DNA from: JBFLYE01 sp040756715 [NCBI: bacterium]
GTDB taxonomy: Bacteria > UBA9089 > UBA9088
Length of the DNA stretch: 14,151 bases
Assembly (NCBI GenBank): GCA_040756715.1
Contig: JBFLYE010000161.1
Coordinates: 801-14,951 of the forward strand
Direction of reading: 5' to 3'
In this document: positions 1 to 12,441 of the stretch, piece after piece
How positions within the stretch are numbered: the stretch's first letter is position 1
Layout: every line of letters begins with the position of its first letter
Made by a program: the position numbers and the translations under genes
The notes under the pieces: model-generated
Database searches by the model: none
The model's input: the letters and a program-made list of their open reading frames with translations, nothing else
What the model was told of the DNA's origin: nothing

Positions 1-28
1 TCAAAATTCAACATTCAAAATTCATAAT
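1..28. repeat. Heptamer-register repeat, four units
   Basis: Read on the plus strand from base 1, the sequence divides into TCAAAAT, TCAACAT, TCAAAAT and TCATAAT, a 7-bp period with unit TCAAAAT. It lies downstream of the GIDE gene and may continue beyond the window edge. The same 7-bp period recurs in four other spacers of this window. The period is seen directly; what generates it is unknown. Confidence 0.6.
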
Positions 29-90
29 TTTATAAAGTTTTCCTTAAGATTATCTAAACACATACATTTTGTAAAGCGTTATGGAATTAA

Positions 91-114
91 CTATAAATAA
101 ATAAACATACCCAT
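91..114 (-). other. Strong Shine-Dalgarno with a 7-codon ORF
   Basis: On the minus strand the sequence AAAGGAGGG (127-119) is the best ribosome-binding site in the window. It is followed after four bases by ATG at 114-112. The reading frame is only MGMFIYL and then TAG (93-91). It may be a leader peptide for a gene left of the window, the decayed start of a lost gene, or chance. The rest of 29-164 shows no coding frame, and its left edge passes into heptamer repeats. No function can be assigned. Confidence 0.3.
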
Positions 115-164
115 TTTTCCCTCCTTTAATCCTTACGAAAAATTTCCCACCGAATTGCAAATTT

Positions 165-968
165 CTATGGTAGACATGACTTTGCTAACAGCGATATACC
201 CATCGTGATGAGTAAGCAAAAACCCATAATAAAAATCAAAGCAATATTTTCTATTCCCAGCTCTTTCCTTACCTCTTTCTCGCTTTTATCTGAAATAACA
301 AATGTTTTTTCTGTATCACCTTTTGCAATAACAATATCATCTTCAGGTTTTTGGGGTTGTTTAAGTTCTTCTTCGAATAATCCTTGCTCTATTTGCTCGC
401 GCGCTTTATCCCATTCTTCAATACTTATCTGGCCATTTTTATCGACATCAAACTGTTTAAGTTTCTCTTTGTCTTTTTTTAAGCTACGGAGTCTTTCCCG
501 AAGCTTCTTTTTACGGTCTAAAACAGCATCTTTAAATTTTCTTACTGTGCCTAAAACATATACCTGTTCATCCGGTTGAATATACCACTCTGTGTAGCGT
601 ATTTCTCCACCACCCGTTGCATCGACATGTTGGTAATCAACCGGTAAGATTGCTTCCGCATCTAATGGGTCAACCAGTATCTTACCCGTATCGTCTTCAA
701 TATAGAAATAATTCGTAGATTTTTCTTCCTTTACAACTTCCCAATAACTTCTTCCCTCGGAATCTTCTTGTTCTTTTTCTATTGTAAACCTATAGTATAC
801 GCAATCAGTATAAGTTAACGGACTTTTTAAGGGGAATCTTTGTTTTGCTTTACCGGTAAGTTCAGCAAAACCCATTGCCACAGAACGAATTTTTGAAGTT
901 GGTATGTTTTCTACTAATCTCTTCTTGCGGAATTGCACAAAGCTGTTTAGAAAAAGATAAAAAAACAA
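165..968 (-). CDS. GIDE-domain membrane protein with EF-hand, N-terminus lost to a frameshift
   Basis: Resembles bacterial proteins carrying the GIDE domain of mitochondrial E3 ligase MUL1; they have no RING finger and their bacterial role is unknown. The stretch RKKRLVENIPTSKIRSVAMG (14-33) is the typical GIDE entry motif. It is followed by the beta-rich domain, ending with TFVISDKSEKE (222-232), and a C-terminal membrane helix at about 242-262. Between the strand VYVLGTVRK (136-144) and the last strands lies a basic helical stretch, then a canonical EF-hand loop with D174, D176, N178, Q180, S182 and E185, a probable calcium site. The frame opens at a TTG directly preceded by TAG, with no Shine-Dalgarno. 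The expected N-terminal membrane segment is found in another frame (862-1122), so the intact protein was probably about 318 residues. It follows efp on the same strand. The family call is fairly secure; whether the gene is functional is uncertain. Confidence 0.75.
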   Translation of the reverse strand: MFFYLFLNSFVQFRKKRLVENIPTSKIRSVAMGFAELTGKAKQRFPLKSPLTYTDCVYYRFTIEKEQEDSEGRSYWEVVKEEKSTNYFYIEDDTGKILVDPLDAEAILPVDYQHVDATGGGEIRYTEWYIQPDEQVYVLGTVRKFKDAVLDRKKKLRERLRSLKKDKEKLKQFDVDKNGQISIEEWDKAREQIEQGLFEEELKQPQKPEDDIVIAKGDTEKTFVISDKSEKEVRKELGIENIALIFIMGFCLLITMGISLLAKSCLP

Positions 969-1122
969 CTAAAATCACTAGTATTTCAGGAGCATATCCA
1001 AATATTTTTGCCTCTTCGAAAGAAACTTTGCCTGAAGCGCAGGCAATAAGAATTGCAAGAACTGTGACTACGAATACCAGAATAACCAAAATTTTTCGTT
1101 TAAATAATTTCTCGTTTTTCAA
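862..1122 (-). CDS. Out-of-frame N-terminal part of the GIDE protein
   Basis: This 86-codon frame begins with TTG, 25 bp after the efp stop. It encodes a basic N-terminus, a hydrophobic stretch (about 11-27) ending in a lipobox-like LIAC with Cys28, a short linker, and a second hydrophobic run PEILVILVV (45-53). The run would continue directly into FYLFLNSFVQFRKKRLVEN of the neighbouring frame if one base of the 7-A run (plus strand 959-965) were removed. After that point the frame (LSFSKQLCAIPQ...) has no recognisable character. I read it as the signal or membrane N-terminus of the GIDE gene, separated by a frameshift in the genome or in the assembly. No Shine-Dalgarno is visible before the TTG, so the exact start is unsure. 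Confidence 0.5.
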   Translation of the reverse strand: MKNEKLFKRKILVILVFVVTVLAILIACASGKVSFEEAKIFGYAPEILVILVVFLSFSKQLCAIPQEEISRKHTNFKNSFCGNGFC

Positions 1123-1147
1123 GGATTTTATTCAGAATACTAAACGA

Positions 1148-1714
1148 TTATGATTTTTTTACCCTATCCACATATTTCCCCGATGCTGTATCAACGATTA
1201 TAACATCTCCCTCCTTTATGAATTGGGGGACAAGAATTTCCATATTGTTCTCCAGGGTTGCACTCTTAAATGGAGCACCAGATGAGCCCTCATGGATAGC
1301 AGAGGCTGTGCTTTCTACCTTAAGTGTAATTGTCTTTGGAAAATCAATGTTTACAGGCTTTCCATCATAGAATTCAACCATAATCTCTGTATTCTCCTTA
1401 AGATATTGGCTAATGCCTCCCACCACAGAAGATGGGAGAGCAAATTGCTCATATGTCTCTTTGTTCATAAAATAATAATTTAAGCCATCGTTATAGATGT
1501 ATTCCATAGGATACTTATCTAATGTTACATCCTCGATCAGGTCATTTCCATGGAAGGTTGCCTGGGTTATGGATTGATTCTCAATATTTTGAATCTTTAG
1601 ATGGACAATCCTTCCTGCCTTTGCCGCACCTCCAAATTCAAGATTCAAGACCCTATAGAGCTTTCCATCTACCATTACAACCCTTCCCTCCCTTGCCTCT
1701 TCTGCCTTAATCAT
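1148..1714 (-). CDS. efp: Translation elongation factor P
   Basis: EF-P binds between the ribosomal P and E sites and relieves stalling at proline-rich stretches. The 188-residue length is normal. An N-terminal KOW-like domain (1-62) is followed by two OB domains (about 66-125 and 128-187). Landmarks are YIYNDGLNYYFMN (72-84), the conserved YNDGxxxxFM region, and the C-terminal signature GDVIIVDTASGKYVDRV (169-185). The tip of the domain I loop aligns Lys32 with the modified Lys34 of E. coli, but the usual PGKG is replaced by AAKA, so the modification route, if any, is unclear. The ATG has a good Shine-Dalgarno (GGTGAAAGG). It overlaps the TGA of the upstream GH57 gene as ATGA, which implies translational coupling at the end of the carbohydrate operon. 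Confidence 0.95.
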   Translation of the reverse strand: MIKAEEAREGRVVMVDGKLYRVLNLEFGGAAKAGRIVHLKIQNIENQSITQATFHGNDLIEDVTLDKYPMEYIYNDGLNYYFMNKETYEQFALPSSVVGGISQYLKENTEIMVEFYDGKPVNIDFPKTITLKVESTASAIHEGSSGAPFKSATLENNMEILVPQFIKEGDVIIVDTASGKYVDRVKKS

Positions 1715-3612
1715 CCTTTCACCTCTATTTTATAATTTACATCAAAAGATGTATTTTTTTCAAGTAAAATTGTTGCCATTATGATAAGGCCTTGTTGGAT
1801 TACATCAAAACATCTTTCTGATTGGGAAACCGTGTATAGAGGTATCTTCCAGAATATAACATCTTTATTGCTTTTTATAATTATATTATCCATTTCTATC
1901 CTTTTCCCCCTTATTTCTTCCTCTTTATCATCAATAATAGAAAAACAAAATTCAACGCCAAACAACCCAGAAATCCCCTTTGTTTTGTATTTAAATTCAA
2001 GGGAATCCTTGTGTAAAATAATTTCCTTAGAGATTGAAATATTTTCATCGCAATATGAAAGCAAAACATTAGAATCCTTGATTTGATAGCGATAAGGCTT
2101 TTCATAGGGCTTAAAGAGCCAGGCAATAGAGCCTTCTTTTACATTCTTTAACCCTGTATCGGGAGAAAATATATGGTCTTGTAAAGAATTGTGGGTATAT
2201 TGGTCATAGAAGAGAAAGGAAGAAGCAGAGGATAGGTCTTTCTTTACCTCGTGAATGCTTGGCGTTTTAGACTCCTCCTCAATTGGGCATTCCTTAAGAA
2301 AGCTGTGATATGCCTCTTTTCTCCTTGAAATTATATCTGTTATATTTTTACCCCCTGTATCTATTTCAGAGATAATTCCACCCTTATAGGGCTCGATAAT
2401 AAGGCTAAAGGGCGATTTTTTTATATAAATTTCATTCTTTAGGTCATTGTTAATGTCTTTTTCTATAACAACATCTTTAACAAAACCCTCCGCCTTAATA
2501 AGGTTTGAATAAAGGCTATTTCTTAAATGAGGAAGGTAAAGCCCGCCAAACACACCATGCCAATATCCACAATTGCATTGTGCCTTATAGAGAAATTTCC
2601 TTGCCTCTCTATTTTCTCCAATAATATTTGAGGTAAAAACCATCCTCTTATGCAAATGGTCTGCCTCAGGGTATTTTATAAAGAAATTCCTAAAATATCC
2701 CCCTTTTAAGAATTCCCTTGCTTTATCATAGAACCCTATCCTTTTTGCCTCCTCAATTACATTATGAAACCTCTCGCAAGATAATGTCAAAAGGCACCAT
2801 TCGGTCATCTCCTCATAAGAGGCACAGGGGATATAGACCTTCCCAGAGGAAGGGAATTTTTCAAGGTATTCGCTAAATCTCTCTGTCTTAAGCCAGTTTT
2901 TATTCTCCTCCAATAATTGGAAAAATGCTTCAAGCCATCCATCTATATATACCCATTTATGTGTCCCAGGCCAAAGGCCAAATTTCTCTCCATCATCACC
3001 CATTGTCAAGCAAGCATCAGGAGGCTTTATCTTTAGATAATCTATGATCTCTTCTGGTCTTCTAAATGGAATAAAATAGCGTAGGTTTTTATCAATAGGA
3101 AATATTCCTAGGGTATTTCCCTGCTCTTCGGTTAAAAAATAGCCAGAAAGGCTATCTATGGGAATCCCTGACCAGAGAAAATGGGTATCATCTATGGTTG
3201 TATATTTTAAAAAAGGAACAAGCTTTGGAATAGAAGGCTCCCAAATCCTCTCGGAAAGCCAAAAACCTTTTGGCTCTATATCAAAATGGGCTTTTAAAAA
3301 ATCATCCATCATCTCAATCTGAGCCTTTGCATCGGCTTCGGGGATTATGGGAAGAATTGGCTCATAAAATCCACCCGATAAAATTTCTACCCTTCCTTCG
3401 CTTATAAGGTTTTTTATTCTTTGTAAGAAATCTGGGTGATTTTCTAAAAGCCATTCAAGGAGGCATCCGCTATAATGGAGATTTATTTTTATCTCTGGAT
3501 GCTTCTCAAATACATCCAGAAATGGCTTGTATGCCTTTTGATATGCATCCTCAAATACATAGGAAAAATTCCCAACCGGCTGATGGGAATGGAGACAGAG
3601 GAGAAGATTCAT
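1711..3612 (-). CDS. GH57 4-alpha-glucanotransferase / alpha-amylase
   Basis: A GH57 enzyme of the Thermococcus litoralis 4-alpha-glucanotransferase type, expected to cut and transfer alpha-1,4-glucan chains in the cytoplasm (no signal peptide). The 633-residue length is close to the roughly 660 of that family. Conserved regions in order: HSHQP (8-12); SGGFYEPILPIIP (79-91); FWLSERIWEPS (117-127), with Glu121 the predicted nucleophile; GDDGEKFGLWPGTH (205-218), with Asp206/Asp207 holding the predicted acid/base. CNCGYWHGVFGGLYLPHLR (347-365) is typical of the DUF1925-like helical region. About residues 385-630 form the C-terminal beta domain (DUF1926-like). The start MNLLLCLHSHQPVGNF matches the family N-terminus, but no Shine-Dalgarno exists: heptamer repeats run up to the ATG. 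It follows another GH57 gene and overlaps efp by ATGA. The exact substrate cannot be fixed from sequence. Confidence 0.9.
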   Translation of the reverse strand: MNLLLCLHSHQPVGNFSYVFEDAYQKAYKPFLDVFEKHPEIKINLHYSGCLLEWLLENHPDFLQRIKNLISEGRVEILSGGFYEPILPIIPEADAKAQIEMMDDFLKAHFDIEPKGFWLSERIWEPSIPKLVPFLKYTTIDDTHFLWSGIPIDSLSGYFLTEEQGNTLGIFPIDKNLRYFIPFRRPEEIIDYLKIKPPDACLTMGDDGEKFGLWPGTHKWVYIDGWLEAFFQLLEENKNWLKTERFSEYLEKFPSSGKVYIPCASYEEMTEWCLLTLSCERFHNVIEEAKRIGFYDKAREFLKGGYFRNFFIKYPEADHLHKRMVFTSNIIGENREARKFLYKAQCNCGYWHGVFGGLYLPHLRNSLYSNLIKAEGFVKDVVIEKDINNDLKNEIYIKKSPFSLIIEPYKGGIISEIDTGGKNITDIISRRKEAYHSFLKECPIEEESKTPSIHEVKKDLSSASSFLFYDQYTHNSLQDHIFSPDTGLKNVKEGSIAWLFKPYEKPYRYQIKDSNVLLSYCDENISISKEIILHKDSLEFKYKTKGISGLFGVEFCFSIIDDKEEEIRGKRIEMDNIIIKSNKDVIFWKIPLYTVSQSERCFDVIQQGLIIMATILLEKNTSFDVNYKIEVKG

Positions 3613-3660
3613 TGGAATGCGGAATTTAGAATGCGGAATGCGGAATGTGAATTGCGAATT
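3612..3660. repeat. Heptamer array, GCGGAAT type
   Basis: On the plus strand, seven consecutive units are TTGGAAT, GCGGAAT, TTAGAAT, GCGGAAT, GCGGAAT, GTGAATT and GCGAATT. The first unit begins on the last base of the GH57 start codon, so the array replaces any ribosome-binding site. The register continues without interruption through TTGTAAC (3661-3667) into the CCCTGAC array. Confidence 0.85.
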
Positions 3661-3667
3661 TTGTAAC

Positions 3668-3695
3668 CCCTGACCCCTGACTCCTGACTCCTGAC
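3668..3695. repeat. Heptamer array, (C/T)CCTGAC, four perfect units
   Basis: The plus strand reads CCCTGAC twice and then TCCTGAC twice, the clearest tandem repeat in the window. On the coding (minus) strand the unit reads GTCAGGA or GTCAGGG. It is in the same 7-bp phase as the adjoining GCGGAAT array, so the whole 88-bp spacer between the two GH57 genes is heptameric. It starts six bases from the stop codon of the upstream GH57 gene. Confidence 0.9.
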
Positions 3696-3700
3696 TCTCA

Positions 3701-5779
3701 TTAACATGACCATTTCATTGCTTCATATTCAGGGGTGGGAACAAACATTGATATATAACCGGATTTTGGCCAATTTTCAATAACCATCCCGCTTCTTTCC
3801 AATGATACTGTGAACCTTACCTCCTCCTTTTGACCTACAGAGATAATCTCAAAAGGAATAGCTAGCTCTAATATTTTAGAAAATGCTATATTCTCTAAAT
3901 CTTCCTTTTTTATCAAGCTTCCCTCAGATGCAATCTCAAATAGCTCTCCCTTTCCATTTTTTGAAACTATTACCTTATACCTTGCCTTTGTCTCTATATT
4001 TATTACCAAAAACTCATTCTCTAAAAAATGATTGAGCACATCAATAGCAATATAAAGGGTTTTAAGGTCATAGCCATACATTATCTTCTTTATCCTATTC
4101 TCTGAATAATGCATTGTTCCGCCAGAAAAGCTTATCTCATAGCTGCCTGCACATAGCCACTCATAATAGCTGGTTATCCTTCCATCTATTATAGGAGAGA
4201 TAGAATGAATAGGAAAGGTTAGGGGCTTTATAAATTTTGGCTTTGTTATTGCCTCATCAAGATAGAAGGGAGGTGTTTTTCCCATGATTTTATAGACATT
4301 CTTAAGGTGTGTTCTAAAGATAAGGTCAAAGATATCATCCTGTGAACACTCAAAATCATCGCCATACCACCAGAACCAATCAGAGCCTTCTGCAATATAT
4401 ATCTCCTCCCATGCACTTTTGTTATTTGGCATATTTCTTATAAGCTCATCCCTTGTATTTTTAAGATAATCCCAAGCCTTATCCTTTTCTATCTTTCCCC
4501 TCCAAATTCTAAAGGAATGGTCAATCCAGCTGCCTGGGTATATATTGGTAAGTTTTGTAGATTCTTTTGCTATATTTGCGAATTCAGAGAATGTTATTGT
4601 CTTTAGATCAGAAAGGCTTGACAATTCCTCATATATTCCAGAAAGGAATGCCTCTCCACCATCCTTATAGTATTCCCAAGGGTTTTCACCATCAAGGATT
4701 ATGCTTACTATATGCTCACCAGGGATAGCAGAGACATAATCCCTTATTCTCTTGAGATGACTGATAAAATCAGAAATAGCATTCTCTGGCTTATTCTGTG
4801 AATAGACAAAGGATATTAAATTTGAAAGGTTTTTGTCCCTGAAGAATACCTTTACCCCCTCTAGCTCATACATCTTGTATATTGAATGCCTACCTAGGTT
4901 TGGAATTGTATTAAAAAGAATCTCCTCATCGGTTGCACACCAGGAAATTTCAGATTGCGAAAGAAGGGGGAATATCTCATCCGAAACACCACCCTCGGGT
5001 GGCCACATACCCCTGGGAGGCTTTCCAAACATTTCAGAATAAAGGCTTATAGCATTTTCGAGCTGAGCTTTTGCATCCTCTTTCAAATCAAACCCTCCCC
5101 TCTTTCCATCCATAAGTAAAGGTAGGATTGGGTGATAGAATGGGCTGGTTGAAATTTCAATTTGACCTTTATCCTGAAGATTTTTGTATTTTAGAATTAT
5201 TGATGCAGCTATTTCCCTTTGTTTTTTAAGGAGTGTTTGCTTTTCATTCTCTGTAAAATCTTCGCCTTTTATAAAAAGGTTATTTATAAATTCATCCTCC
5301 CTTGCCTTAAATCCAAACCAGCTTAGGTTATAAAAAACCTGGAGGTCTCTTATATCCCTCTCGGAAAATTCATTTATTCTCTTTTTAATCTCATTTATTG
5401 ATACATTTTTTCCCCTCTTCTGCAATAATTGCTTGAACCTTGGATATGGAAAAACCATTGTCTCCCAATTGCATAAGAAAAAGTTTGAAAGGAGGTATAT
5501 TTTATCATCGTCGGTTAAAGAATTAGCAGGTTTTTTGCTTATTTCATAATGGTAATCAGCTACATCATTCTTTGCAATATCCCTAATTTGGGACAAAAGG
5601 GATGGTGTAAGGTTAAAGGTTGCCTTAATATTTGGAAATTTCTCAAGGATAGATGCCATATCATAATAGCCCTTTGTTGAATGAAGCCTTACCCAGGGAA
5701 GGGTATATGAATTTGTAAGGCTATCCTTATAGAATGGCTGATGGAGGTGCCATAGAAATGAGAGATACAATGTTTTCAT
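3701..5779 (-). CDS. GH57 family alpha-amylase/amylopullulanase-like glycosidase (COG1449 type)
   Basis: A second GH57 enzyme of the COG1449 group (alpha-amylase, pullulanase or related alpha-glucan hydrolase), probably cytoplasmic. Numbered from the chosen ATG (692 residues): LWHLHQP (9-15); TSPFYHPILPL (211-221); MWPPEGGVSDE (258-268), with Glu262 the likely nucleophile; ILDGENPWEYY (361-371), with Asp363 the likely acid/base. The stretch AEGSDWFWWYGDDFECS (463-479) and FRTHLKNVY (488-496) mark the helical part typical of this group. From about residue 525 a beta-rich C-terminal module begins (IDGRITSYYEWLCAG), similar to a carbohydrate-binding or DOMON-like fold. I use the ATG at 5779 because its A-T-G-A overlaps the galT stop and gives the family N-terminus MKTLYLSFLWHLHQP. 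An in-frame ATG at 5854 would add 25 residues out of the galT 3' end without family character. Exact substrate unknown. Confidence 0.88.
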   Translation of the reverse strand: MKTLYLSFLWHLHQPFYKDSLTNSYTLPWVRLHSTKGYYDMASILEKFPNIKATFNLTPSLLSQIRDIAKNDVADYHYEISKKPANSLTDDDKIYLLSNFFLCNWETMVFPYPRFKQLLQKRGKNVSINEIKKRINEFSERDIRDLQVFYNLSWFGFKAREDEFINNLFIKGEDFTENEKQTLLKKQREIAASIILKYKNLQDKGQIEISTSPFYHPILPLLMDGKRGGFDLKEDAKAQLENAISLYSEMFGKPPRGMWPPEGGVSDEIFPLLSQSEISWCATDEEILFNTIPNLGRHSIYKMYELEGVKVFFRDKNLSNLISFVYSQNKPENAISDFISHLKRIRDYVSAIPGEHIVSIILDGENPWEYYKDGGEAFLSGIYEELSSLSDLKTITFSEFANIAKESTKLTNIYPGSWIDHSFRIWRGKIEKDKAWDYLKNTRDELIRNMPNNKSAWEEIYIAEGSDWFWWYGDDFECSQDDIFDLIFRTHLKNVYKIMGKTPPFYLDEAITKPKFIKPLTFPIHSISPIIDGRITSYYEWLCAGSYEISFSGGTMHYSENRIKKIMYGYDLKTLYIAIDVLNHFLENEFLVINIETKARYKVIVSKNGKGELFEIASEGSLIKKEDLENIAFSKILELAIPFEIISVGQKEEVRFTVSLERSGMVIENWPKSGYISMFVPTPEYEAMKWSC

Positions 5780-6801
5780 GGTAAATCTGCTTCCCTTAAT
5801 GCCTTTGCTGCCTCCTCTGGCGGCGTTGGGTTTATATAAAACCCGCTTCCCCATTCAAACCCGGCAACCCTAGTAAGCTTTGGCATTATCTCAATATGCC
5901 AGTGAAAATCCTCATTCAATGTCTGCCAATAACCCCTTCTGGCAAACCTGTTGGGTGCGGTATGGATAATATAGTTATATTGAGGGTCATTAAGGCAGGT
6001 AGCAAGCTTCTTAAAGACTATAGAAAAAATCTCTGCCAATAAATTATTGTTCTTTTTTACAGCCTCAGAATGGAAGTCTATATCGTGGTGCTTGGGAAGG
6101 ATGCATATCTCAAAGGGAAACCTTGAGGCATATGGACAGAATGCAACAAATCCATCGTTCTCAGAGACTATTCTTTTCTCAAGGAAAAGTTCTTCCTCCA
6201 TAATATCGCAGAAGAGACACCTCTCTTTTGCTTTAAAATAGGCTTCTGCACCTTGCAATTCTCCCTTTACAGTCCTTGGCGTAACAGGCGTTGCAATAAG
6301 CTGGGTATGTGGATGAAATAGAGATGCACCTGCCTCTATGCCCTTATTCTTAAAGACAAGGACATACCTCATATTAAGGTCTTTATGTAAATCTTCAATT
6401 CTGTGCTGAAGAGTAAAAATAACATTCTTTATCTCATCAAGGGATTGATCCTTAATATGCTTATGGTGATCCGGCGTTTCTATAATAACCTCATGGGCAC
6501 CATACCCTATCATTATATCATATACACCCCTTCCCTTTTTTGCCAATTTTTCATCGATGCCCAAAGCTGGGAATTTATTGGGAACAACCCTTATATCCCA
6601 TCCTCTTTCATCTGGTTTTGAGCCGGGTTTTCTTATGCTATAAATCTCCTTTGGTGTCATCCATTCATTTCCAGGGCAAAATGGGCAACTACCAACATCT
6701 GTTTTTTCTGGAGGCTTTTCAAATGCGCCAGGTCTTTTCCCCCTTTCCGAGGCAATAATAACCCACCTTCCCAATATCGGATCCTTCCTTAATTCACTCA
6801 T
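5776..6801 (-). CDS. galT: Galactose-1-phosphate uridylyltransferase-family nucleotidyltransferase
   Basis: HIT-superfamily GalT, which exchanges UMP between UDP-glucose and galactose-1-phosphate. In operons with glucan enzymes related proteins may act on other sugar-1-phosphates. The 341-residue length is normal. MSELRKDPILGRWVIIA is the classical N-terminus. C39/C42 (CPFC) and H113 or H115 are probable zinc ligands, and a second CxxC is at C195/C198. The active-site motif HPHTQ lies at 163-167, with His165 the expected uridylylated histidine. NEDFHWHIEIMP (296-307) provides the C-terminal HxH of the family. A TATAAT hexamer (6813-6808) stands only six bases before the ATG, but I find no matching -35. 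AAGGG touches the ATG, too close for a usual Shine-Dalgarno. It appears to be the first gene of a galT-GH57-GH57-efp unit, coupled to the next gene by ATGA. Confidence 0.9.
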   Translation of the reverse strand: MSELRKDPILGRWVIIASERGKRPGAFEKPPEKTDVGSCPFCPGNEWMTPKEIYSIRKPGSKPDERGWDIRVVPNKFPALGIDEKLAKKGRGVYDIMIGYGAHEVIIETPDHHKHIKDQSLDEIKNVIFTLQHRIEDLHKDLNMRYVLVFKNKGIEAGASLFHPHTQLIATPVTPRTVKGELQGAEAYFKAKERCLFCDIMEEELFLEKRIVSENDGFVAFCPYASRFPFEICILPKHHDIDFHSEAVKKNNNLLAEIFSIVFKKLATCLNDPQYNYIIHTAPNRFARRGYWQTLNEDFHWHIEIMPKLTRVAGFEWGSGFYINPTPPEEAAKALREADLP

Positions 6802-6844
6802 CCCTTAATTATATATCGTCATTTTTTAAAAAAATCTTTACCTT

Positions 6845-6865
6845 AAATTTTGACTTTTGATTTTT
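6845..6865. repeat. Heptamer-register repeat at the 3' end of the second pilT
   Basis: The plus strand reads AAATTTT, GACTTTT, GATTTTT and continues into the TTA that is the stop codon (TAA on the minus strand) of the second pilT gene. Three units in a 7-bp register; low complexity makes it weaker than the array at 3612-3695. Confidence 0.5.
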
Positions 6866-7937
6866 ATTTTGCTTCCCCTTCTCCTGTTATTACAGAAAGA
6901 AGCTCGGCAACATCTGTGGCTTTGCTTATAGCCTCCTCTGGGCTAATCAGACCTTCTTTTGAGAGGTCAATAAGGGATTGATTCAAAGAGACCATTCCCT
7001 GCCTCCTTCCCACCTGTAAAAATGAGGGAATTTGATATGTTCTGCCCTCCCTGATTAAATTTCTTACCGCAGGAACAGCGATCAAAATCTCAAATGCGGC
7101 AATTCTTCCTTTGCCATCAGCCCTTTTCAAAAGAACCTGGGAGACAATACCCTGAAGGTTTGCGGCTAATTGAATACGCACCTGTTGTTGCTGATGGGGA
7201 GGGAAAACATCTATTATTCTATCTATTGTCTGGGTTGCATCTGGTGTATGAAGGGTTGCCAAAACAAGGTGTCCTGTCTCTGCCGCGGTAATGGCTGTTT
7301 GAATTGTCTCTAAGTCCCTCATTTCACCAATAAGAATTATATCAGGGTCTTGACGAAACATATGCTTTAAGGCATCTTTAAAGCTTAATGTATCAGAACC
7401 AACCTGCCTCTGATTTATAACAGCCTTTTTAGATGAATGGACAAATTCAATGGGATCCTCAACCGTAACAATATGTGAGGTGCTATTTTCATTTATAAAA
7501 TCTATTAAAGCTGCCAGGGTGGTTGACTTTCCAGATGAGGCAGGGCCTGTTACCAGAATCATCCCCCTTGGTCTTGTGCATAGGCTCTTTACCACAGAAG
7601 GGATTTTTAGCTCATCCATGGTTGGGATTTTATATGGAATTGCCCTGAACACAGAAGCCACGCTCCTTTGCTGATAGAATATATGCATCCTAAACCTTGA
7701 GAGGTTCTTTATGTCCATACAGAGATCAAGAGAGAGGTCCTTCTTGAACCTCTCCTTCTGGGCATCTGTAAGCAATGCCAAAGATAGGCTCTCTGCCTCC
7801 TCCTGGGTAAAGGGCCTTATTTCTTTTAAAGATATAAGATCTCCGGCTATCCTAAGAAGGGGCGAGGAATGTGCCTTGATATGGAGGTCAGAAGCCTCCT
7901 TCTTCAGCATCAACTCCAAAAGCTTCTCAATAATCAA
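6864..7937 (-). CDS. PilT-family type IV pilus twitching motility ATPase, second copy
   Basis: A secretion-superfamily hexameric ATPase that powers pilus retraction at the inner-membrane base of the type IV pilus. Numbered from the TTG start (357 residues): SDLHIKA (16-22) of the N-terminal PAS-like domain; FRAIP (97-101); Walker A GPASSGKST (131-139), with Ser where most PilT proteins have the middle Gly; Walker B/Asp region DPDIILIGEMRD (197-208); His box GHLVLATLHT (222-231). AVRNLIREG (290-298) closely matches the AIRNLIRE retraction motif of PilT. An ATG at 7976 would add 13 residues (MQISNLQF...) that are simply translated heptamer repeat. The TTG at 7937 has AGGAG (7952-7948) ten bases upstream and restores the family N-terminus, so I prefer it. 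It follows another pilT, as pilU follows pilT in pseudomonads, but its role relative to the first copy is open. Confidence 0.88.
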   Translation of the reverse strand: MIIEKLLELMLKKEASDLHIKAHSSPLLRIAGDLISLKEIRPFTQEEAESLSLALLTDAQKERFKKDLSLDLCMDIKNLSRFRMHIFYQQRSVASVFRAIPYKIPTMDELKIPSVVKSLCTRPRGMILVTGPASSGKSTTLAALIDFINENSTSHIVTVEDPIEFVHSSKKAVINQRQVGSDTLSFKDALKHMFRQDPDIILIGEMRDLETIQTAITAAETGHLVLATLHTPDATQTIDRIIDVFPPHQQQQVRIQLAANLQGIVSQVLLKRADGKGRIAAFEILIAVPAVRNLIREGRTYQIPSFLQVGRRQGMVSLNQSLIDLSKEGLISPEEAISKATDVAELLSVITGEGEAK

Positions 7938-7952
7938 AGTCGCTTCGCTCCT

Positions 7953-8001
7953 AAATTGTAAATTTGAAATTTGCAATTTACCATTTGCAACTTACAATTC
8001 A
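7953..8001. repeat. Heptamer array between the two pilT genes
   Basis: The plus strand reads AAATTGT, AAATTTG, AAATTTG, CAATTTA, CCATTTG, CAACTTA, CAATTCA: seven degenerate units in one register. The last unit contains the stop codon of the first pilT (TGA, 8001-7999). The array ends one base before the AGGAG used by the second pilT. Confidence 0.7.
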
Positions 8002-9075
8002 TAACGCTATTCCCATCCTTAATGCCCTTTGTTCAAAATCTGCTGGGTTTGATGTCTTTTGTATTGCCTCAGAATAAGAAACAATACCCCTTCTTGTTAG
8101 ATTTAAAAGGCTCTGGTCAAGGGTTTGCATTCCAAATTTTGCACCTGCCTGGATAATAGAATATATCTGCTCTGATTTGCCTGTCCTTATAAGGCTTCTT
8201 ACACCTGTATTTGCCACCATAAGCTCTGTAGCAACAATCCTTCCCTTTCCATCTGCCTTAATAAGAAGCGTCTGGGAAAGAACGCCCTGAATGGTCATGG
8301 CAAGCTGTGCCCTTACCTGTGCCTGCTGATCAGGCGGATATACATCTATTATTCTATTTATGGTTGAAACAGCATCGGTTGTATGGAGGGTTGTTAAAAC
8401 GAGGTGCCCCATCTCTGCAGCTGTTACAGCGGCAGAGATTGTTTCCAGGTCTCTTAGCTCACCAACCAGGATGATGTCAGGATCCTCCCTTATCACAGCC
8501 TTTAGGGCATCGGCAAAGCTCTTTGTATCTACACCAAGCTCCCTCTGGCTTATGCTGGCAAGATTATCCTTATAAACAAATTCTATTGGATCTTCAATGG
8601 TAATAATATTCCCCCTCCTTTTTGAGTTTATATAATTTACCATTGCTGCCAGGGTGGTTGACTTTCCAGAGCCGGTTGGACCTGTAACCAAAAATATTCC
8701 CCTCTGCTTAATGGCTATGTCCTTTAATGTTAAAGGAAGCTCAAGCTCTTCAATGGTTGGAATATTTAATGGAATTGCCCTGATCGCCGCACCCACAAAA
8801 CCCCTCTGCCAGAAAAGGTTCATCCGAAACCTTGTTTCAAAACCCTCTGGCGTATAGGCAATATCAAGCTCCATTGTTTCTTCAAAGATTCTTTTTCTCT
8901 CATCGTTTAATATCTCGTATAGGATATTTTTTGTATCATTAGCGGTAAGCTTTTGGGTATTGGGCTTTGTTAGCCTTCCATTTATCCGAAATATTGGCGG
9001 CTCTTCTGCCTTTATATGAAGGTCAGAACCCTTTCTTTCAAGAAGCTCTTTTAATAATCCATCTATTTTTGCCAT
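7999..9075 (-). CDS. pilT: PilT-family type IV pilus twitching motility ATPase, first copy
   Basis: Predicted pilus-retraction ATPase, 358 residues, a usual length for PilT. It shows SDLHIKA (17-23); the arm motif AIRAIP (97-102); a perfect Walker A GPTGSGKST (132-140); Walker B/Asp region DPDIILVGELRD (198-209), with Glu206 the expected catalytic acid; and His box GHLVLTTLHTTDA (223-235). The C-terminal motif corresponding to AIRNLIRE is GVRSLIRTG (291-299), more diverged than in the next gene. The ATG start gives MAKIDGLLKELLERKGSDLH, a normal PilT N-terminus. No Shine-Dalgarno is present; instead a TTGACA-17-TATATT promoter ends eight bases before the ATG, so the transcript is probably leaderless. 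pilB, pilC and pilin genes are not in the window, so the rest of the pilus system must be elsewhere. Confidence 0.93.
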   Translation of the reverse strand: MAKIDGLLKELLERKGSDLHIKAEEPPIFRINGRLTKPNTQKLTANDTKNILYEILNDERKRIFEETMELDIAYTPEGFETRFRMNLFWQRGFVGAAIRAIPLNIPTIEELELPLTLKDIAIKQRGIFLVTGPTGSGKSTTLAAMVNYINSKRRGNIITIEDPIEFVYKDNLASISQRELGVDTKSFADALKAVIREDPDIILVGELRDLETISAAVTAAEMGHLVLTTLHTTDAVSTINRIIDVYPPDQQAQVRAQLAMTIQGVLSQTLLIKADGKGRIVATELMVANTGVRSLIRTGKSEQIYSIIQAGAKFGMQTLDQSLLNLTRRGIVSYSEAIQKTSNPADFEQRALRMGIAL

Positions 9076-9083
9076 TTAATTTA

Positions 9084-9112
9084 AATATATCAAGATTTTA
9101 AGAATTTGTCAA
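9084..9112 (-). promoter_or_regulatory. Sigma70-type promoter of pilT, probably leaderless
   Basis: On the minus strand TTGACA (9112-9107) is a perfect -35, followed by a 17-bp spacer and TATATT (9089-9084), a 5/6 match to TATAAT. The -35 lies inside the last codons of the upstream nucleotidyltransferase gene, and the -10 directly follows its TGA. Eight bases separate the -10 from the pilT ATG, so transcription should begin at or within a base or two of the A of ATG. Confidence 0.7.
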
Positions 9113-11243
9113 GGAATTTTACCTCATCATCTTTGGTCTTTATCTTCCCATCCAATTTAAGATAAAAGAGTTCCCTTAATATCTTTTTATATATAGGACC
9201 AGGCTTAATTCCCCTCTTTTTTAGGTAATCACCGGTAAGATAAAGGGAGGTCTTTCTAAGCACAATAAGGAATAAAAATACCCTTTTTTTTATAATAATG
9301 CTCCTTGTCTTTGACATTATAAAGACCAAGCCCTCAAGGGGCATCTTGTTTAACCTCTCATAAATTGCGCTATTTTTAAGGCTTTTATTCTTTAAGAACA
9401 AAAGAATTTCTTTGTCCTCCTTTATCCTTAAAACATCCCTTCTTATTTTAGAAGAAAACCTTAATCTAAAAAGAAATTTTTCTGCCTCCTCTTTTGTAAG
9501 AGAATCCACAAGGACAAGGAGATGAAGCAGGGATATGTCTATTTCATCCTCAAGGATTGATGCCTGAAGCAAAGCCTCCCTGGCCCTTAAAAATCCATTT
9601 TTATTTACCCTCAAACCTTGATGAATAAAATTTAAGCCACCTAATTTAGAAAGACGCAAAAAAGCCTTCTGGGGTCTTTCGTCAGACAAGATAAGCCAAA
9701 GCTCATTTCTTATCCTAGGTTTGCTTATCTGTGATAAACAGCCATTCTTTATCGCCTCAAATGCTTCCTTTTCTGTTTCTCTATCCATCTTAAATCCCAA
9801 GCGCGATTCAAACCTTACCGCCCTCAAAATCCTTGTTGGATCATCAATAAAGCTTTTTTTATGGAGAATTTTTATTCTTTTATTCTTAATGTCATCACAA
9901 CCTCCATAAACATCTATCAGGTTTCCCTTTCCCCTTTTGTTTAAAAAAATCCCTAAGGTATTCATGGTAAAATCCCGGCGTTTTAAATCTTTTTTTAAGG
10001 ATGCCTCCTTTACAAGGGGAAGGGCCCCTGGATGCCTATAGACCTCAGAGCGAGATGTAGCAATATCTATCTTTATTCCGTTTTTTAAAATTTGTGCTGT
10101 TTTGAACTTAGGGTGAAAAATACAATCCAAAGAAAGCCTCTCGCTTAATTTTTTTGCAAACAATATTCCATCTCCCACAATCAAAATATCAAGGCTTTTT
10201 GAGACTTTTCCCATAATCAGGTCCCTTACAAACCCGCCAATAATATAGCAAGAAACCTTCATTTCATCTGCCAATTTAGATGCCTCATCTATAAAATCAC
10301 GAAGGAAAGAAGGAACCTTTGCCTCTATGAGAAACAAAAGGTTTCTTTTATTCCTCCTTATCCTTGAAATAAGCATCCTTTTTAGCTCTAAAATAGACCT
10401 CTCTTTTATGGTTGCCGAACCTGCCTCAGGATGACCACCTCCCCCAAAATCAGAAAGAATCGCTCCCACATCTATATCTTTTATTCTTGACCTTGCAATA
10501 ATATGGATATGCTCTTCTTTTTTAATCAGGATAAACAAACAAGAAAATCCTTCTATATCCATCATTCTATGGGCAAGGATAGCCAAATCGCCAATATATT
10601 TATCTATTTTTAAAAAGGAAAATGCAATATCAATATTGTTTATCTTATAAACCCTTGTGGATGCAAGTAGTTTTGAAAGAAGGATAATTTCATCCTTGCT
10701 GGGAGCTGTGTTTAGATACGATGAAACAAAAGAAAGGTCTGCACCCTTCTTAAGAAGCCATAAAACAGAGGATATGTCCTCTTTTCTTGTGGTTGGAAAT
10801 GTTAAAGAGCCTGTATCTTCATATATCCCAAGGCAAAACAAGGATGCCTCCTCTTTTGTGATCTCTATCCTTTTTTTTCTTAAAATTTCTAAAAGTATGG
10901 TAATGGTTGCTCCATATTCCTTTGTTATTACCCTGTTTCCTGATATATCATCTGGCTGGTTTGGGTGATGATCATAGATATAAATAGGAATATCCTTAAC
11001 TTGTGAAAATTTCCCAATCCTTCTTTTCTCCCTTGTATCAACAAGGATAAGCCTTTTTATATCCTTTAAGCTTATCTGTTTTGATTTTAAAATCCCCTGG
11101 GGATTTTGAAAAAGAAAGTTTTTTACTACAGCTTCACAAGAACCAGATAAAACCTTCTTTGCAGATGGATAAAGCTTGGCTGCGGCAACAATAGAGGCAA
11201 TGGCATCAAAATCTGCATTTGTATGGGTGGTGATAACATCCAT
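9090..11243 (-). CDS. DHH/DHHA1 phosphoesterase fused to CCA-type tRNA nucleotidyltransferase
   Basis: Residue numbers here count from the upstream GTG at 11255 (721 residues). The N-terminal DHH phosphoesterase has NADFDAIAS (13-21), Asp73, DHH (95-97) and EDTGS (146-150). DHHA1 motif GGGGHPEAGSATI is at 271-283. The class II nucleotidyltransferase head follows with GGFVRDLIMG (340-349), KIDIATSRSEVYRHPGALP (395-413), KRRDFTMN (425-432), LIDVYGG (446-452) and DDPTRILRAVRF (471-482), which select nucleotides or shape the active site. It should repair or build the CCA end of tRNAs. Two oddities: the metal-binding DxD is SLD (Ser354), and the CBS pair usually placed between the two halves is absent, making it shorter than the 850-900 residues typical of such fusions. 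I prefer the ATG at 11243 (MDVITTHTNADFD matches family starts); the GTG at 11255 has GAGGAA 13 bases upstream and remains possible. Domain calls are firm, activity is uncertain. Confidence 0.88.
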   Translation of the reverse strand: MDVITTHTNADFDAIASIVAAAKLYPSAKKVLSGSCEAVVKNFLFQNPQGILKSKQISLKDIKRLILVDTREKRRIGKFSQVKDIPIYIYDHHPNQPDDISGNRVITKEYGATITILLEILRKKRIEITKEEASLFCLGIYEDTGSLTFPTTRKEDISSVLWLLKKGADLSFVSSYLNTAPSKDEIILLSKLLASTRVYKINNIDIAFSFLKIDKYIGDLAILAHRMMDIEGFSCLFILIKKEEHIHIIARSRIKDIDVGAILSDFGGGGHPEAGSATIKERSILELKRMLISRIRRNKRNLLFLIEAKVPSFLRDFIDEASKLADEMKVSCYIIGGFVRDLIMGKVSKSLDILIVGDGILFAKKLSERLSLDCIFHPKFKTAQILKNGIKIDIATSRSEVYRHPGALPLVKEASLKKDLKRRDFTMNTLGIFLNKRGKGNLIDVYGGCDDIKNKRIKILHKKSFIDDPTRILRAVRFESRLGFKMDRETEKEAFEAIKNGCLSQISKPRIRNELWLILSDERPQKAFLRLSKLGGLNFIHQGLRVNKNGFLRAREALLQASILEDEIDISLLHLLVLVDSLTKEEAEKFLFRLRFSSKIRRDVLRIKEDKEILLFLKNKSLKNSAIYERLNKMPLEGLVFIMSKTRSIIIKKRVFLFLIVLRKTSLYLTGDYLKKRGIKPGPIYKKILRELFYLKLDGKIKTKDDEVKFLDKFLKS

Positions 11244-11288
11244 AGCAGGAAGCACGAAATAATATTCGTTCCTCTAAATTATATTGTT

Positions 11289-11337
11289 TTGAATTTTTAA
11301 TTTTAGTTATTTGAATTTTTTTTATTTCGAATTTCAT
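11289..11337. repeat. AT-rich heptamer-register repeat after dnaN
   Basis: The plus strand can be split into TTGAATT, TTTAATT, TTAGTTA, TTTGAAT, TTTTTTT, ATTTCGA, ATTTCAT. The period is visible but the composition is nearly pure A+T, so this is the least secure of the heptamer spacers. The spacer 11256-11358 also holds a TATAAT hexamer just upstream of GAGGAA, with no convincing -35. Confidence 0.4.
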
Positions 11338-11358
11338 TTTTTTATTAAAGCTAAACAT

Positions 11359-12441
11359 TTATTCCCTTACCGGCATAATGATATAGATAATGTTAGGGTT
11401 ATCTTTAATTTTTATAATCCCTTTATCTATATTATTAGAAACAGCGAATATGATTTTATTATTAGAAATATTTTTTAAAACATCAAGGATATATTTTGGA
11501 TTAAATAAAATACTAAATTCATCACCTTTATAATCTATCTCTATTTCCTCTCTTACATCACCTAAACTACTTTCTGCGGTAATAAAAAGCCTATTTTTTT
11601 CTGTAATAAATTTGGAAGAATTATCTCCCTCTTGGCTGATAAGGGATATCCTTCTTAAAACAGAATGAAATATATCCCTATCTAATTCAATTTCCCTTAA
11701 AGGCTCTTTGGGAATGATTTTATTATAATCGGGAAACTTCCCCTCTAATTGCCTTGAGATAAACAATATATTTTCTGTCTCTATTCCTATTTCCTTATCA
11801 GAAATATAAACCTTTATATCCTTCTCAATACCCCTTAATACCTTTATTATCTCATAAACGGCCTTTATAGGAATTATAATACTTATACTATCTTTTATTT
11901 CTAAATTATCTGAGATAACACTTAATCTATATTTATCACTTGTTACCATTTTTATTTTATTATTCCCTAATTCTAAATATATTCCACAAAATGGGATAAG
12001 TGTTTCATCCTGTGAGGCTGAAAATATAACCATTCTTATCATCTCTAGTAAAAGATTTGGGGGAATATTAAATTCTATATCCCATTTAATCTTTGGAAAG
12101 CTTGGAAATTCCTCAGGTGGTATTCCTGTAAGATGAAATATAGAGCCCTTAGAACTTATTTTTGTTTTTAGATTATCTACCTCTATTATAATTTCATCCT
12201 CTAAATTATTTATAATCTCGGTAAGTTTTCTTCCTGGAAGGAGGATAGAACCATCTTTTTCTATATCTATTTTTTGTTTATATTTTATAGACATATTCAT
12301 ATCTGTCCCAATAGTGGTTAAATATCCATCTTTTGCTTCAAAAAAGATATTATTTAATATAGGTATAGGCGATTTGAGATTAGAAATCAAGGTTTTTTGA
12401 AATTGATCCTGTAATATCTCTTTTTTAGAAATTATTTTCAT
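11359..12441 (-). CDS. dnaN: DNA polymerase III beta sliding clamp
   Basis: The ring-shaped clamp that tethers DNA polymerase III and other partners to DNA. The 360-residue length fits three similar clamp domains (about 1-120, 128-245, 247-360). Recognisable landmarks are GTDMNMSI (45-52), LLPGRKLTEII (67-77), FSASQDETLIPFCGIYLEL (140-158), TSDKYRLSVIS (167-177) for the canonical ATDGHRLA, QLEGKFPDY (231-239), and the C-terminal MPVRE in place of the common MPMRL. The sequence is diverged and Ile/Lys-rich in line with the AT-rich genome. It lies directly after dnaA, the classical order. No Shine-Dalgarno precedes the ATG; a candidate promoter ends eight bases before it, as at pilT, so dnaN may be translated from a leaderless mRNA in addition to any dnaA read-through. 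Confidence 0.95.
   Translation of the reverse strand: MKIISKKEILQDQFQKTLISNLKSPIPILNNIFFEAKDGYLTTIGTDMNMSIKYKQKIDIEKDGSILLPGRKLTEIINNLEDEIIIEVDNLKTKISSKGSIFHLTGIPPEEFPSFPKIKWDIEFNIPPNLLLEMIRMVIFSASQDETLIPFCGIYLELGNNKIKMVTSDKYRLSVISDNLEIKDSISIIIPIKAVYEIIKVLRGIEKDIKVYISDKEIGIETENILFISRQLEGKFPDYNKIIPKEPLREIELDRDIFHSVLRRISLISQEGDNSSKFITEKNRLFITAESSLGDVREEIEIDYKGDEFSILFNPKYILDVLKNISNNKIIFAVSNNIDKGIIKIKDNPNIIYIIMPVRE

What the first reader, a model, noticed from the sequence alone, without database searches (positions are those of the whole stretch)
1..11337. A 7-bp register runs through every non-origin spacer longer than about 50 bp
Spacers at 1-28, 3612-3695, 6845-6865, 7953-8001 and 11289-11337 all divide into consecutive heptamers. 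Their words differ (TCAAAAT; GCGGAAT; CCTGAC with C or T first; GATTTTT; AAATTTG; TTTNAAT). Five unrelated spacers sharing the period but not the word suggests one process, such as templated heptamer addition, slippage, or a protein reading one word per 7 bp, that seeds and diversifies these arrays. Heptameric short tandemly repeated sequences are described in filamentous cyanobacteria, so the same period here may reflect a mechanism shared across phyla. The period is seen directly; the mechanism is inference. Low complexity weakens the arrays at 6845 and 11289.
Basis: partly seen in the sequence, partly recalled or inferred. Interest (0 to 1): 0.68.

Follow-up and report, generated by a model that had tools for sequence, protein, structure and literature searches.

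The report
Seven-base repeat arrays between genes
Several gaps between genes in this uncultured bacterium hold short repeats with a strict seven-base step; some belong to small mobile elements, the seven-base step is already known from other bacteria, and the repeated word at a given gap can change between related species while the step stays.

Summary
The 7-bp register is real, but not in every spacer. Against 1000 shuffles it is strong in 3 of 6 non-origin spacers over 50 bp (1-28, 3613-3700, 7947-7998), marginal at 6845 and 11289, absent at 969-1147. In 40 contigs sampled by number, 38 of 54 intergenic tandem arrays have period 7; 0 in shuffles.

The five arrays do not share one origin. Window 1-95 is half of a MITE (consensus 241 bp; 100 ends in the genome). 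Window 11270-11357 resembles a congener element that matches a heptad-built family also found outside the phylum. The 6845 motif is nearly unchanged in a congener. Spacers 3613 and 7947 hold true heptad arrays.

Period without word holds at some orthologous sites: 3613-3700 has GAATGCG and CCTGACT here, TTTTTAG in the congener; one Nitrospira spacer has arrays in 8 of 16 loci with about five word groups. In the 80 named loci 18 of 19 neighbouring array pairs are inverted.

Excess of heptamers, and a slippage hypothesis, are in print. Genome-specific vocabularies (p=0.0024) suggest arrays are also copied between spacers.

The parts
1..95 (-). Right half of a MITE (call it MITE1; consensus 241 bp; ends TATAGT...ACTATA); its heptad arm is 1-28. 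The left half lies outside the window, beyond a 10-N gap at contig C161 ~697-800.
   Evidence: contig 696-895 matches both ends of the element; 100 5'-end matches in the genome, 1 in G001.
3614..3661 (.). Heptad array of form GAATNNN (GAATGCG, GAATTTA, GAATGTG, GAATTGC) in the spacer between two GH57 genes
   Evidence: G001 has TTTTTAG TTTTAAG TTTTTAG TTTT in the orthologous spacer.
3666..3697 (.). Heptad array CCTGACT/CCTGACC in the same spacer, ending 3 nt from the upstream gene's stop codon
6845..6865 (.). Two-unit TTTTGA-type motif; not significant over the spacer; nearly unchanged in the congener
7939..7949 (+). GTCGCTTCGCT flank motif that also abuts AAATTTN arrays elsewhere in this genome and in G001
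   Evidence: 6 matches (1 mismatch allowed) in 460 kb of G000, 3 of them followed by such an array (window copy included); 9 in 950 kb of G001, 3 of them so followed.
7951..7998 (.). AAATTTN heptad array, partly self-complementary
   Evidence: z 6.0; hairpin energy on the + strand p=0.02 against column-permuted arrays, - strand p=0.15.
11270..11357 (.). Probably a decayed copy of a dispersed heptad-built element
   Evidence: 83% identical over 99 columns to G001 L181:3686-3784; L181:3710-3856 matches a model of the cross-phylum element at E 7.7e-7; the window copy itself does not reach E 1e-4.

Best explanation
The 7-bp register is a mixture. (1) Non-autonomous dispersed elements whose arms are heptad arrays: a TA-inserting MITE at 1-95 and, probably, an older heptad-built palindromic family at 11270-11357. 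(2) Ordinary bacterial heptameric tandem arrays (STRR/LSSR type) at 3614-3697 and 7951-7998. SHOWN: a strict intergenic period of 7 in this genome, in a congener and in loci of other phyla; at orthologous spacers whole-array presence or absence, one 7-bp unit difference, and different words with the same period; inverted pairing of neighbouring arrays in the named loci; vocabularies that differ between two congeners; insertion of MITE1. INFERRED: arrays grow and shrink in 7-nt steps by replication slippage, perhaps helped by the hairpin that two inverted arrays form; template switching within the strand keeps the two arms alike; and arrays are copied between spacers (transposition or conversion), so that a spacer's word follows its genome's vocabulary rather than a local seed.
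For: Period; one four-unit pattern at period 7 in 86 of 290 genomes against 28 of 290 at period 8. Unit step: L153 against L233 differ by one 7-bp unit. Words replaced: window spacers 3613-3700 and 11256-11358 against G001; Nitrospira spacers. Inverted pairs: in the 80 named loci 18 of 19 neighbouring pairs score 5 or more of 7 Watson-Crick positions, mean 5.79 against 3.87 after re-pairing, 0 of 2000 re-pairings as high. Vocabulary: word similarity within genomes 0.116, between 0.045, p=0.0024 with 10 G000 and 39 G001 arrays after dropping suspected element copies (p=0.0035 with 12 and 43). MITE1: 100 ends in G000, 1 in G001; of 16 copies tested, 2 had an alignable empty site, both keeping one TA. 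Identity falls slightly with unit distance (0.87 at lag 7, 0.79-0.81 at lag 28).
Against: No seed for the replaced words is seen in the sister spacer (3613-3700; L129 against L257), so local slippage alone does not explain gain. Inverted pairing is not significant in this genome (4 pairs, p=0.24) and only suggestive in G001 (p=0.09 re-paired, 0.0025 against random arrays); direct similarity of neighbours is also raised in the named loci (p=0.004). The two arrays of spacer 3613-3700 are no more complementary than column-permuted arrays (p=0.62 and 0.85). The cross-phylum element shows no covariation. The decay of identity is inflated by selecting arrays at lag 7. No enzyme was linked: the single DDE_3 gene found has no MITE1 ends in its 3.3-kb locus. 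Why 7 and not 6 or 8 stays unexplained.
Confidence: 0.5

Rival explanations
1. Selected RNA or DNA hairpins: the arrays are kept because paired inverted arms fold at the 3' ends of genes and affect termination or mRNA stability; the word is free as long as the arms match.
For: Inverted pairs in the named loci; few arrays between divergent genes there, 2 of 102 against 39 of 275 tandem and 8 of 79 convergent, p=0.0004; tandem spacers with arrays fold better there (median z -2.39 against -0.75); in G001 arrays start a median 4.5 nt after the stop codon, nearer than to the next start (p=0.004).
Against: In G000 and G001 folding is hardly better than in other spacers (median z -0.78 and -0.76 against -0.12 and -0.57) and divergent spacers are not avoided; in the named loci arrays are not nearer the stop (21 against 19 nt). 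No covariation in the cross-phylum element. Hairpins do not require a period of 7.
Confidence: 0.2
2. Protein-binding arrays: a nucleoid or regulatory protein reads one word per 7 bp.
For: Proposed for paired heptamer and octamer repeats of Geobacter metallireducens (IHF/HU; PMC2700814, passages). Words are mildly non-random (AATT, ACT/AGT, TCA/TGA enriched, ATA/TAT depleted).
Against: 65 distinct consensus words among the arrays of three sets and word replacement at one spacer are hard to reconcile with one reader; 7 bp is not the helical repeat.
Confidence: 0.12
3. Templated heptamer addition by a polymerase with an internal 7-nt template.
For: Strict step, word differs between species, word common within a genome.
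Against: Several words per genome and mixed words in one array; inverted pairs; no candidate enzyme was sought or found.
Confidence: 0.05
4. All arrays are remains of dispersed elements, none a locally grown tandem repeat.
For: 71 of 89 lag-7 arrays in the biased G000 sample are MITE1; other families with GTTTAGC or TCGCTTCGCT flanks.
Against: 10-12 G000 and 39-43 G001 arrays have no recognised element flank; one clean 7-bp unit difference.
Confidence: 0.1

Closest known systems
Heptameric STRR of filamentous cyanobacteria and long simple sequence repeats of bacteria
   Same: Intergenic, period 7, degenerate units; heptamers the commonest class in most genomes, with 7-nt polymerase contact and slippage proposed (PMC4679880 introduction; PMC4692102 passages and Discussion).
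   Different: Here words differ at one orthologous spacer between congeners, and many arrays are arms of MITE-like elements. Cyanobacterial words were not compared.
GGGAATC / GGGGA(C/T)T heptamer repeats of Xanthomonas and Nostoc (PMC4692102)
   Same: Intergenic heptads; 70 and 75 inverted pairs in two Xanthomonas genomes; under-represented between divergent genes; length and sequence variation between the two species (passages).
   Different: One G-rich word family per genome, able to form quadruplexes; here several, mostly AT-rich words.
TAACTGA direct repeats of marine Beggiatoaceae (PMC4679880)
   Same: Heptamer arrays shared with Cyanobacteria and Bacteroidetes (abstract).
   Different: One fixed word, mostly just upstream of start codons.
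Paired heptanucleotide multicopy elements of Geobacter metallireducens (PMC2700814)
   Same: Tandem heptamers on opposite strands in many copies (passages).
   Different: Fixed consensus per class; no replacement at orthologous spacers in the passages read.
MITEs with TA target duplication (IS630/Tc1-like; label recalled)
   Same: Inverted ends, no coding capacity, TA duplication, about 100 copies.
   Different: Heptad arms; the one G001 copy has a period-8 interior instead (period read by eye).

Membership tests
Heptameric STRR/LSSR (3614-3697, 7951-7998) | Tandem 7-bp units beyond chance | tested here: met
   p<0.001 in both spacers.
Heptameric STRR/LSSR (3614-3697, 7951-7998) | Period 7 exceeds other periods in intergenic DNA of the genome | tested here: met
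   on samples of the genome.
Heptameric STRR/LSSR (3614-3697, 7951-7998) | Copy number changes by whole units | tested here: inconclusive
   One case elsewhere in the genome (L153 against L233); not seen at the window's own arrays.
Cyanobacterial STRR | Same words as in cyanobacteria | not tested
   No named cyanobacterial genome was compared.
MITE (1-95) | Inverted ends and many near-identical copies | tested here: met
   (17 full copies in the sample).
MITE (1-95) | Target duplication and empty site | tested here: met
   of 16 copies tested 2 aligned across the joined flanks in G001, both keeping one TA; 8 matched one side only, 6 had no match. The window copy is not one of the two.
MITE (1-95) | Autonomous partner with the same ends | tested here: inconclusive
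   one DDE_3 gene, no such ends in its locus; other transposase families were not searched.
Rfam RNA family | Match at gathering score | tested here: not met
   window and 6 loci; only a tRNA in L118.
Structured RNA (cross-phylum element) | Compensatory base changes | tested here: not met
   15 copies, 12 predicted pairs, 1 with a double change, covariation term +0.12.

The most novel reading that the evidence does not exclude
Period-7 intergenic arrays are a class of module in their own right: paired inverted heptad arms whose word is rewritten in concert, so that both arms of a spacer and many spacers of a genome converge on that genome's vocabulary while the 7-nt step never changes. Some have been captured by MITEs, and one ~135-bp form occurs in several phyla. 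Some intrinsic or dedicated process would then copy arrays between spacers and hold the step at 7.
Probability: 0.25. Interest if true: 0.75.

Novelty: new variant of a known kind. Interest (0 to 1): 0.48.

Why it matters
The excess of 7-nt repeats in bacterial spacers has been reported without a settled cause. Orthologous spacers that keep the period but swap the word, arms that match within a spacer, and genome-specific vocabularies turn it into a testable question: are these arrays grown by 7-nt slippage, or copied as modules? It also warns that repeats in one spacer may be pieces of mobile elements rather than local microsatellites.

Tried and rejected
Reversed-word control as proof of a fixed word: rejected. 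In 290 genomes the reversed GAMTNNN pattern was about as common in phylum-mates as the forward one, and one array can match both, so a period-8 control was used. One shared word form GA[AC]TNNN for all window arrays: suggested, but that count was dominated by MITE1.

Complementarity of the two arrays of spacer 3613-3700: a minus-strand fold with 5-bp helices every 7 nt looked striking, but permuting the array columns gives energies as low (p=0.62), so I dropped it. A conserved RNA structure for the cross-phylum element: not supported. An IS630-type partner for MITE1: none found by one family search.

All heptads near stop codons: holds in G001, not in the named loci. 'All different words' in the Nitrospira spacer: corrected to about five groups among 8 after canonical words were counted.

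Papers. One search found none. Searches searched short repeat strings: two papers each, of which one, on a cyanobacterium (listing only), may bear on the subject. PMC4060949 held none of my six terms.
Full report
WHAT THE WINDOW IS. The window is C161:801-14951 of G000, a 1.55-Mb genome in 218 contigs, 96% complete. Its ten main genes lie on the minus strand and include dnaA, dnaN, two PilT-like ATPases (T2SSE), GalT, two GH57 enzymes, EF-P and a DHH/poly(A)-polymerase fusion. The nearest held genomes are a congener, G001 (88% identity for the GH57 protein), and a family member, G002 (62%). G002 C60 has the same length (7,805 bases) as the GTDB record UBA9088.

THE OBSERVATION. Against 1000 dinucleotide shuffles, lag-7 runs are strong at 1-28, 3613-3700 and 7947-7998, marginal at 6802-6863 and 11256-11358, and absent at 969-1147. 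So the register is real in 3 of 6 non-origin spacers over 50 bp. In 40 contigs chosen by number, intergenic DNA has its highest autocorrelation z-score at lag 7 (10.4), and 38 of 54 TRF arrays have period 7, with none in 5 shuffled sets. The ORF caller was crude, so 'intergenic' is approximate. Coding sequence also holds lag-7 runs (30 in G000, 59 in G001), fewer per base.

FIVE ARRAYS, SEVERAL ORIGINS. (a) 1-28 is the arm of a MITE. 46 distinct contexts of the arm core were seen in the sample. 17 full-length copies give a 241-bp consensus from the 14 without gaps, ends TATAGT...ACTATA. A 5'-end pattern with up to 2 mismatches has 100 places in G000, 1 in G001 and 1 each in two others of 21 genomes. 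Of 16 copies tested, 2 have an alignable empty site in G001, each keeping one TA; 8 matched on one side only and 6 not at all. (b) 11270-11357 is 83% identical to a G001 element at another place. (c) 6845-6865 is nearly unchanged in G001. (d) 3614-3697 and (e) 7951-7998 are tandem heptad arrays. The latter follows the motif GTCGCTTCGCT, which abuts such arrays in 3 of 6 places in the G000 sample and 3 of 9 in the G001 sample.

ORTHOLOGOUS SPACERS. Of 176 internal G000 spacers in the sample, 24 could be matched in the G001 sample; 10 of the 24 have a lag-7 run of score 9 or more in either genome. Two have different words with the same period: spacer 3613-3700 (GAATGCG and CCTGACT against TTTTTAG) and spacer 11256-11358 (element copy against TTTTGAG). 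One has the same array with a unit changed (L114). One shares an array that differs by exactly one 7-bp unit and has a MITE in G000 only (L153). One has a conserved array plus a second array in G000 only (L129). The other five show an array or MITE remnant in one genome only (L117, two in L149, two in L156). The family member G002 shows no evident array at spacer 3613-3700 (by eye).

OTHER PHYLA. In 80 named loci (1.25 Mb, 119 kb intergenic; Nitrospira, Nitrospinae, Deltaproteobacteria and others) there are 50 lag-7 arrays, 33 at lag 14 and at most 6 at any other lag 4-13. In 290 genomes a four-unit GAMT pattern occurs in 86 at period 7 and 28 at period 8. In G000 the counts are 131 against 0, in G001 64 against 6. 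The reversed pattern is also common at period 7, so the pattern's word is not special. Among 25 loci of the 80 that I took as Nitrospira-like by title (some further Nitrospirae loci were left out), 6 of 18 spacers conserved in 3 or more loci hold arrays. Spacer (4,5) has them in 8 of 16 loci and spacer (7,8) in 6 of 23. By canonical word the eight loci of spacer (4,5) fall into about five groups, with L068/L080 and L078/L087/L092 sharing words.

INVERTED PAIRS. In the 80 loci 18 of 19 neighbouring array pairs are inverted by my score of 5 or more of 7; mean 5.79 against 3.87 on re-pairing, none of 2000 as high. Direct similarity is raised too (4.00 against 3.49, p=0.004). In G001 (19 pairs) the excess is weak, and in G000 (4 pairs, MITE1 excluded) it is not significant. 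Arrays avoid divergent spacers in the 80 loci (2 of 102, p=0.0004) but not in G000 or G001.

A CROSS-PHYLUM ELEMENT. A 233-bp element of this genome (L176:735-967) matches 36 of 290 genomes at E<=0.001, several outside the phylum at 74-76% identity over ~130-140 bp, best E 3e-21. E-values are per genome and the sequence is AT-rich, so weak rows may be chance. Fifteen copies align with 25 invariant columns, many spaced by 7. No covariation supports a conserved fold, although single copies fold with z from -0.1 to -7.3. Rfam has no match in the loci given.

VOCABULARIES. After removing MITE1 and arrays with recognised element flanks, words resemble each other more within G000 or G001 than between them: 0.116 against 0.045, p=0.0024 with 10 and 39 arrays (12 and 43 arrays, p=0.0035). 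G001's TTTTTAG at spacer 3613-3700 is one of its commonest words (AAAAACT class), and the G000 words recur at other G000 spacers. The one-word version of this test (AAAACT-type, 1 of 12 against 13 of 43) is not significant (p=0.16).

MECHANISM. I judge slippage in 7-nt steps plus copying of arrays between spacers the best account (0.5). The unit difference and decay with distance favour slippage. The lack of a visible seed in the sister spacer and the genome vocabularies favour copying. Neither step was observed directly.

WHAT IS KNOWN. Passages and the Discussion of PMC4692102, the abstract and introduction of PMC4679880 and passages of PMC2700814 already report heptamer excess, a slippage hypothesis, inverted pairs and cross-phylum sharing of one word. 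I saw no report of word replacement at orthologous spacers in those passages; searches did not list one by title, which is not proof of absence.

Noticed in passing
L258 (G001 C42:~11449-11620): The one G001 copy with the MITE1 ends has a different interior, an array of about 8-bp period (GAGCACCA type), as if the element body can host different arrays.
   Followed up: partly
L116:18742-18903, L176:741-961, L179:1768-1955, G001 L236, L238, L262: Boxes bounded by GTGTTTAG...CTAAACAC with quite different interiors, several with inverted heptad or octad arrays (4 in the G000 sample, 6 in the G001 sample).
   Followed up: partly
window 9090-11255: A 721-aa protein joining DHH/DHHA1 to a poly(A)-polymerase/CCA-type domain.
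   Followed up: no
window 165-968: ORF with a GIDE-like domain (named E3 ubiquitin ligase in Pfam) plus a weak EF-hand below the curated cut-off.
   Followed up: no
G000 contig ends, e.g. L130, L149, L161, L166: Many contigs of this assembly stop inside MITE1, and 10-N gaps sit inside copies, so the element probably fragments the assembly.
   Followed up: no
window 7999-9075 and 6864-7976 against G001 L181: The second PilT gene is missing next to the first in G001; the 7947 array sits at this synteny breakpoint.
   Followed up: no
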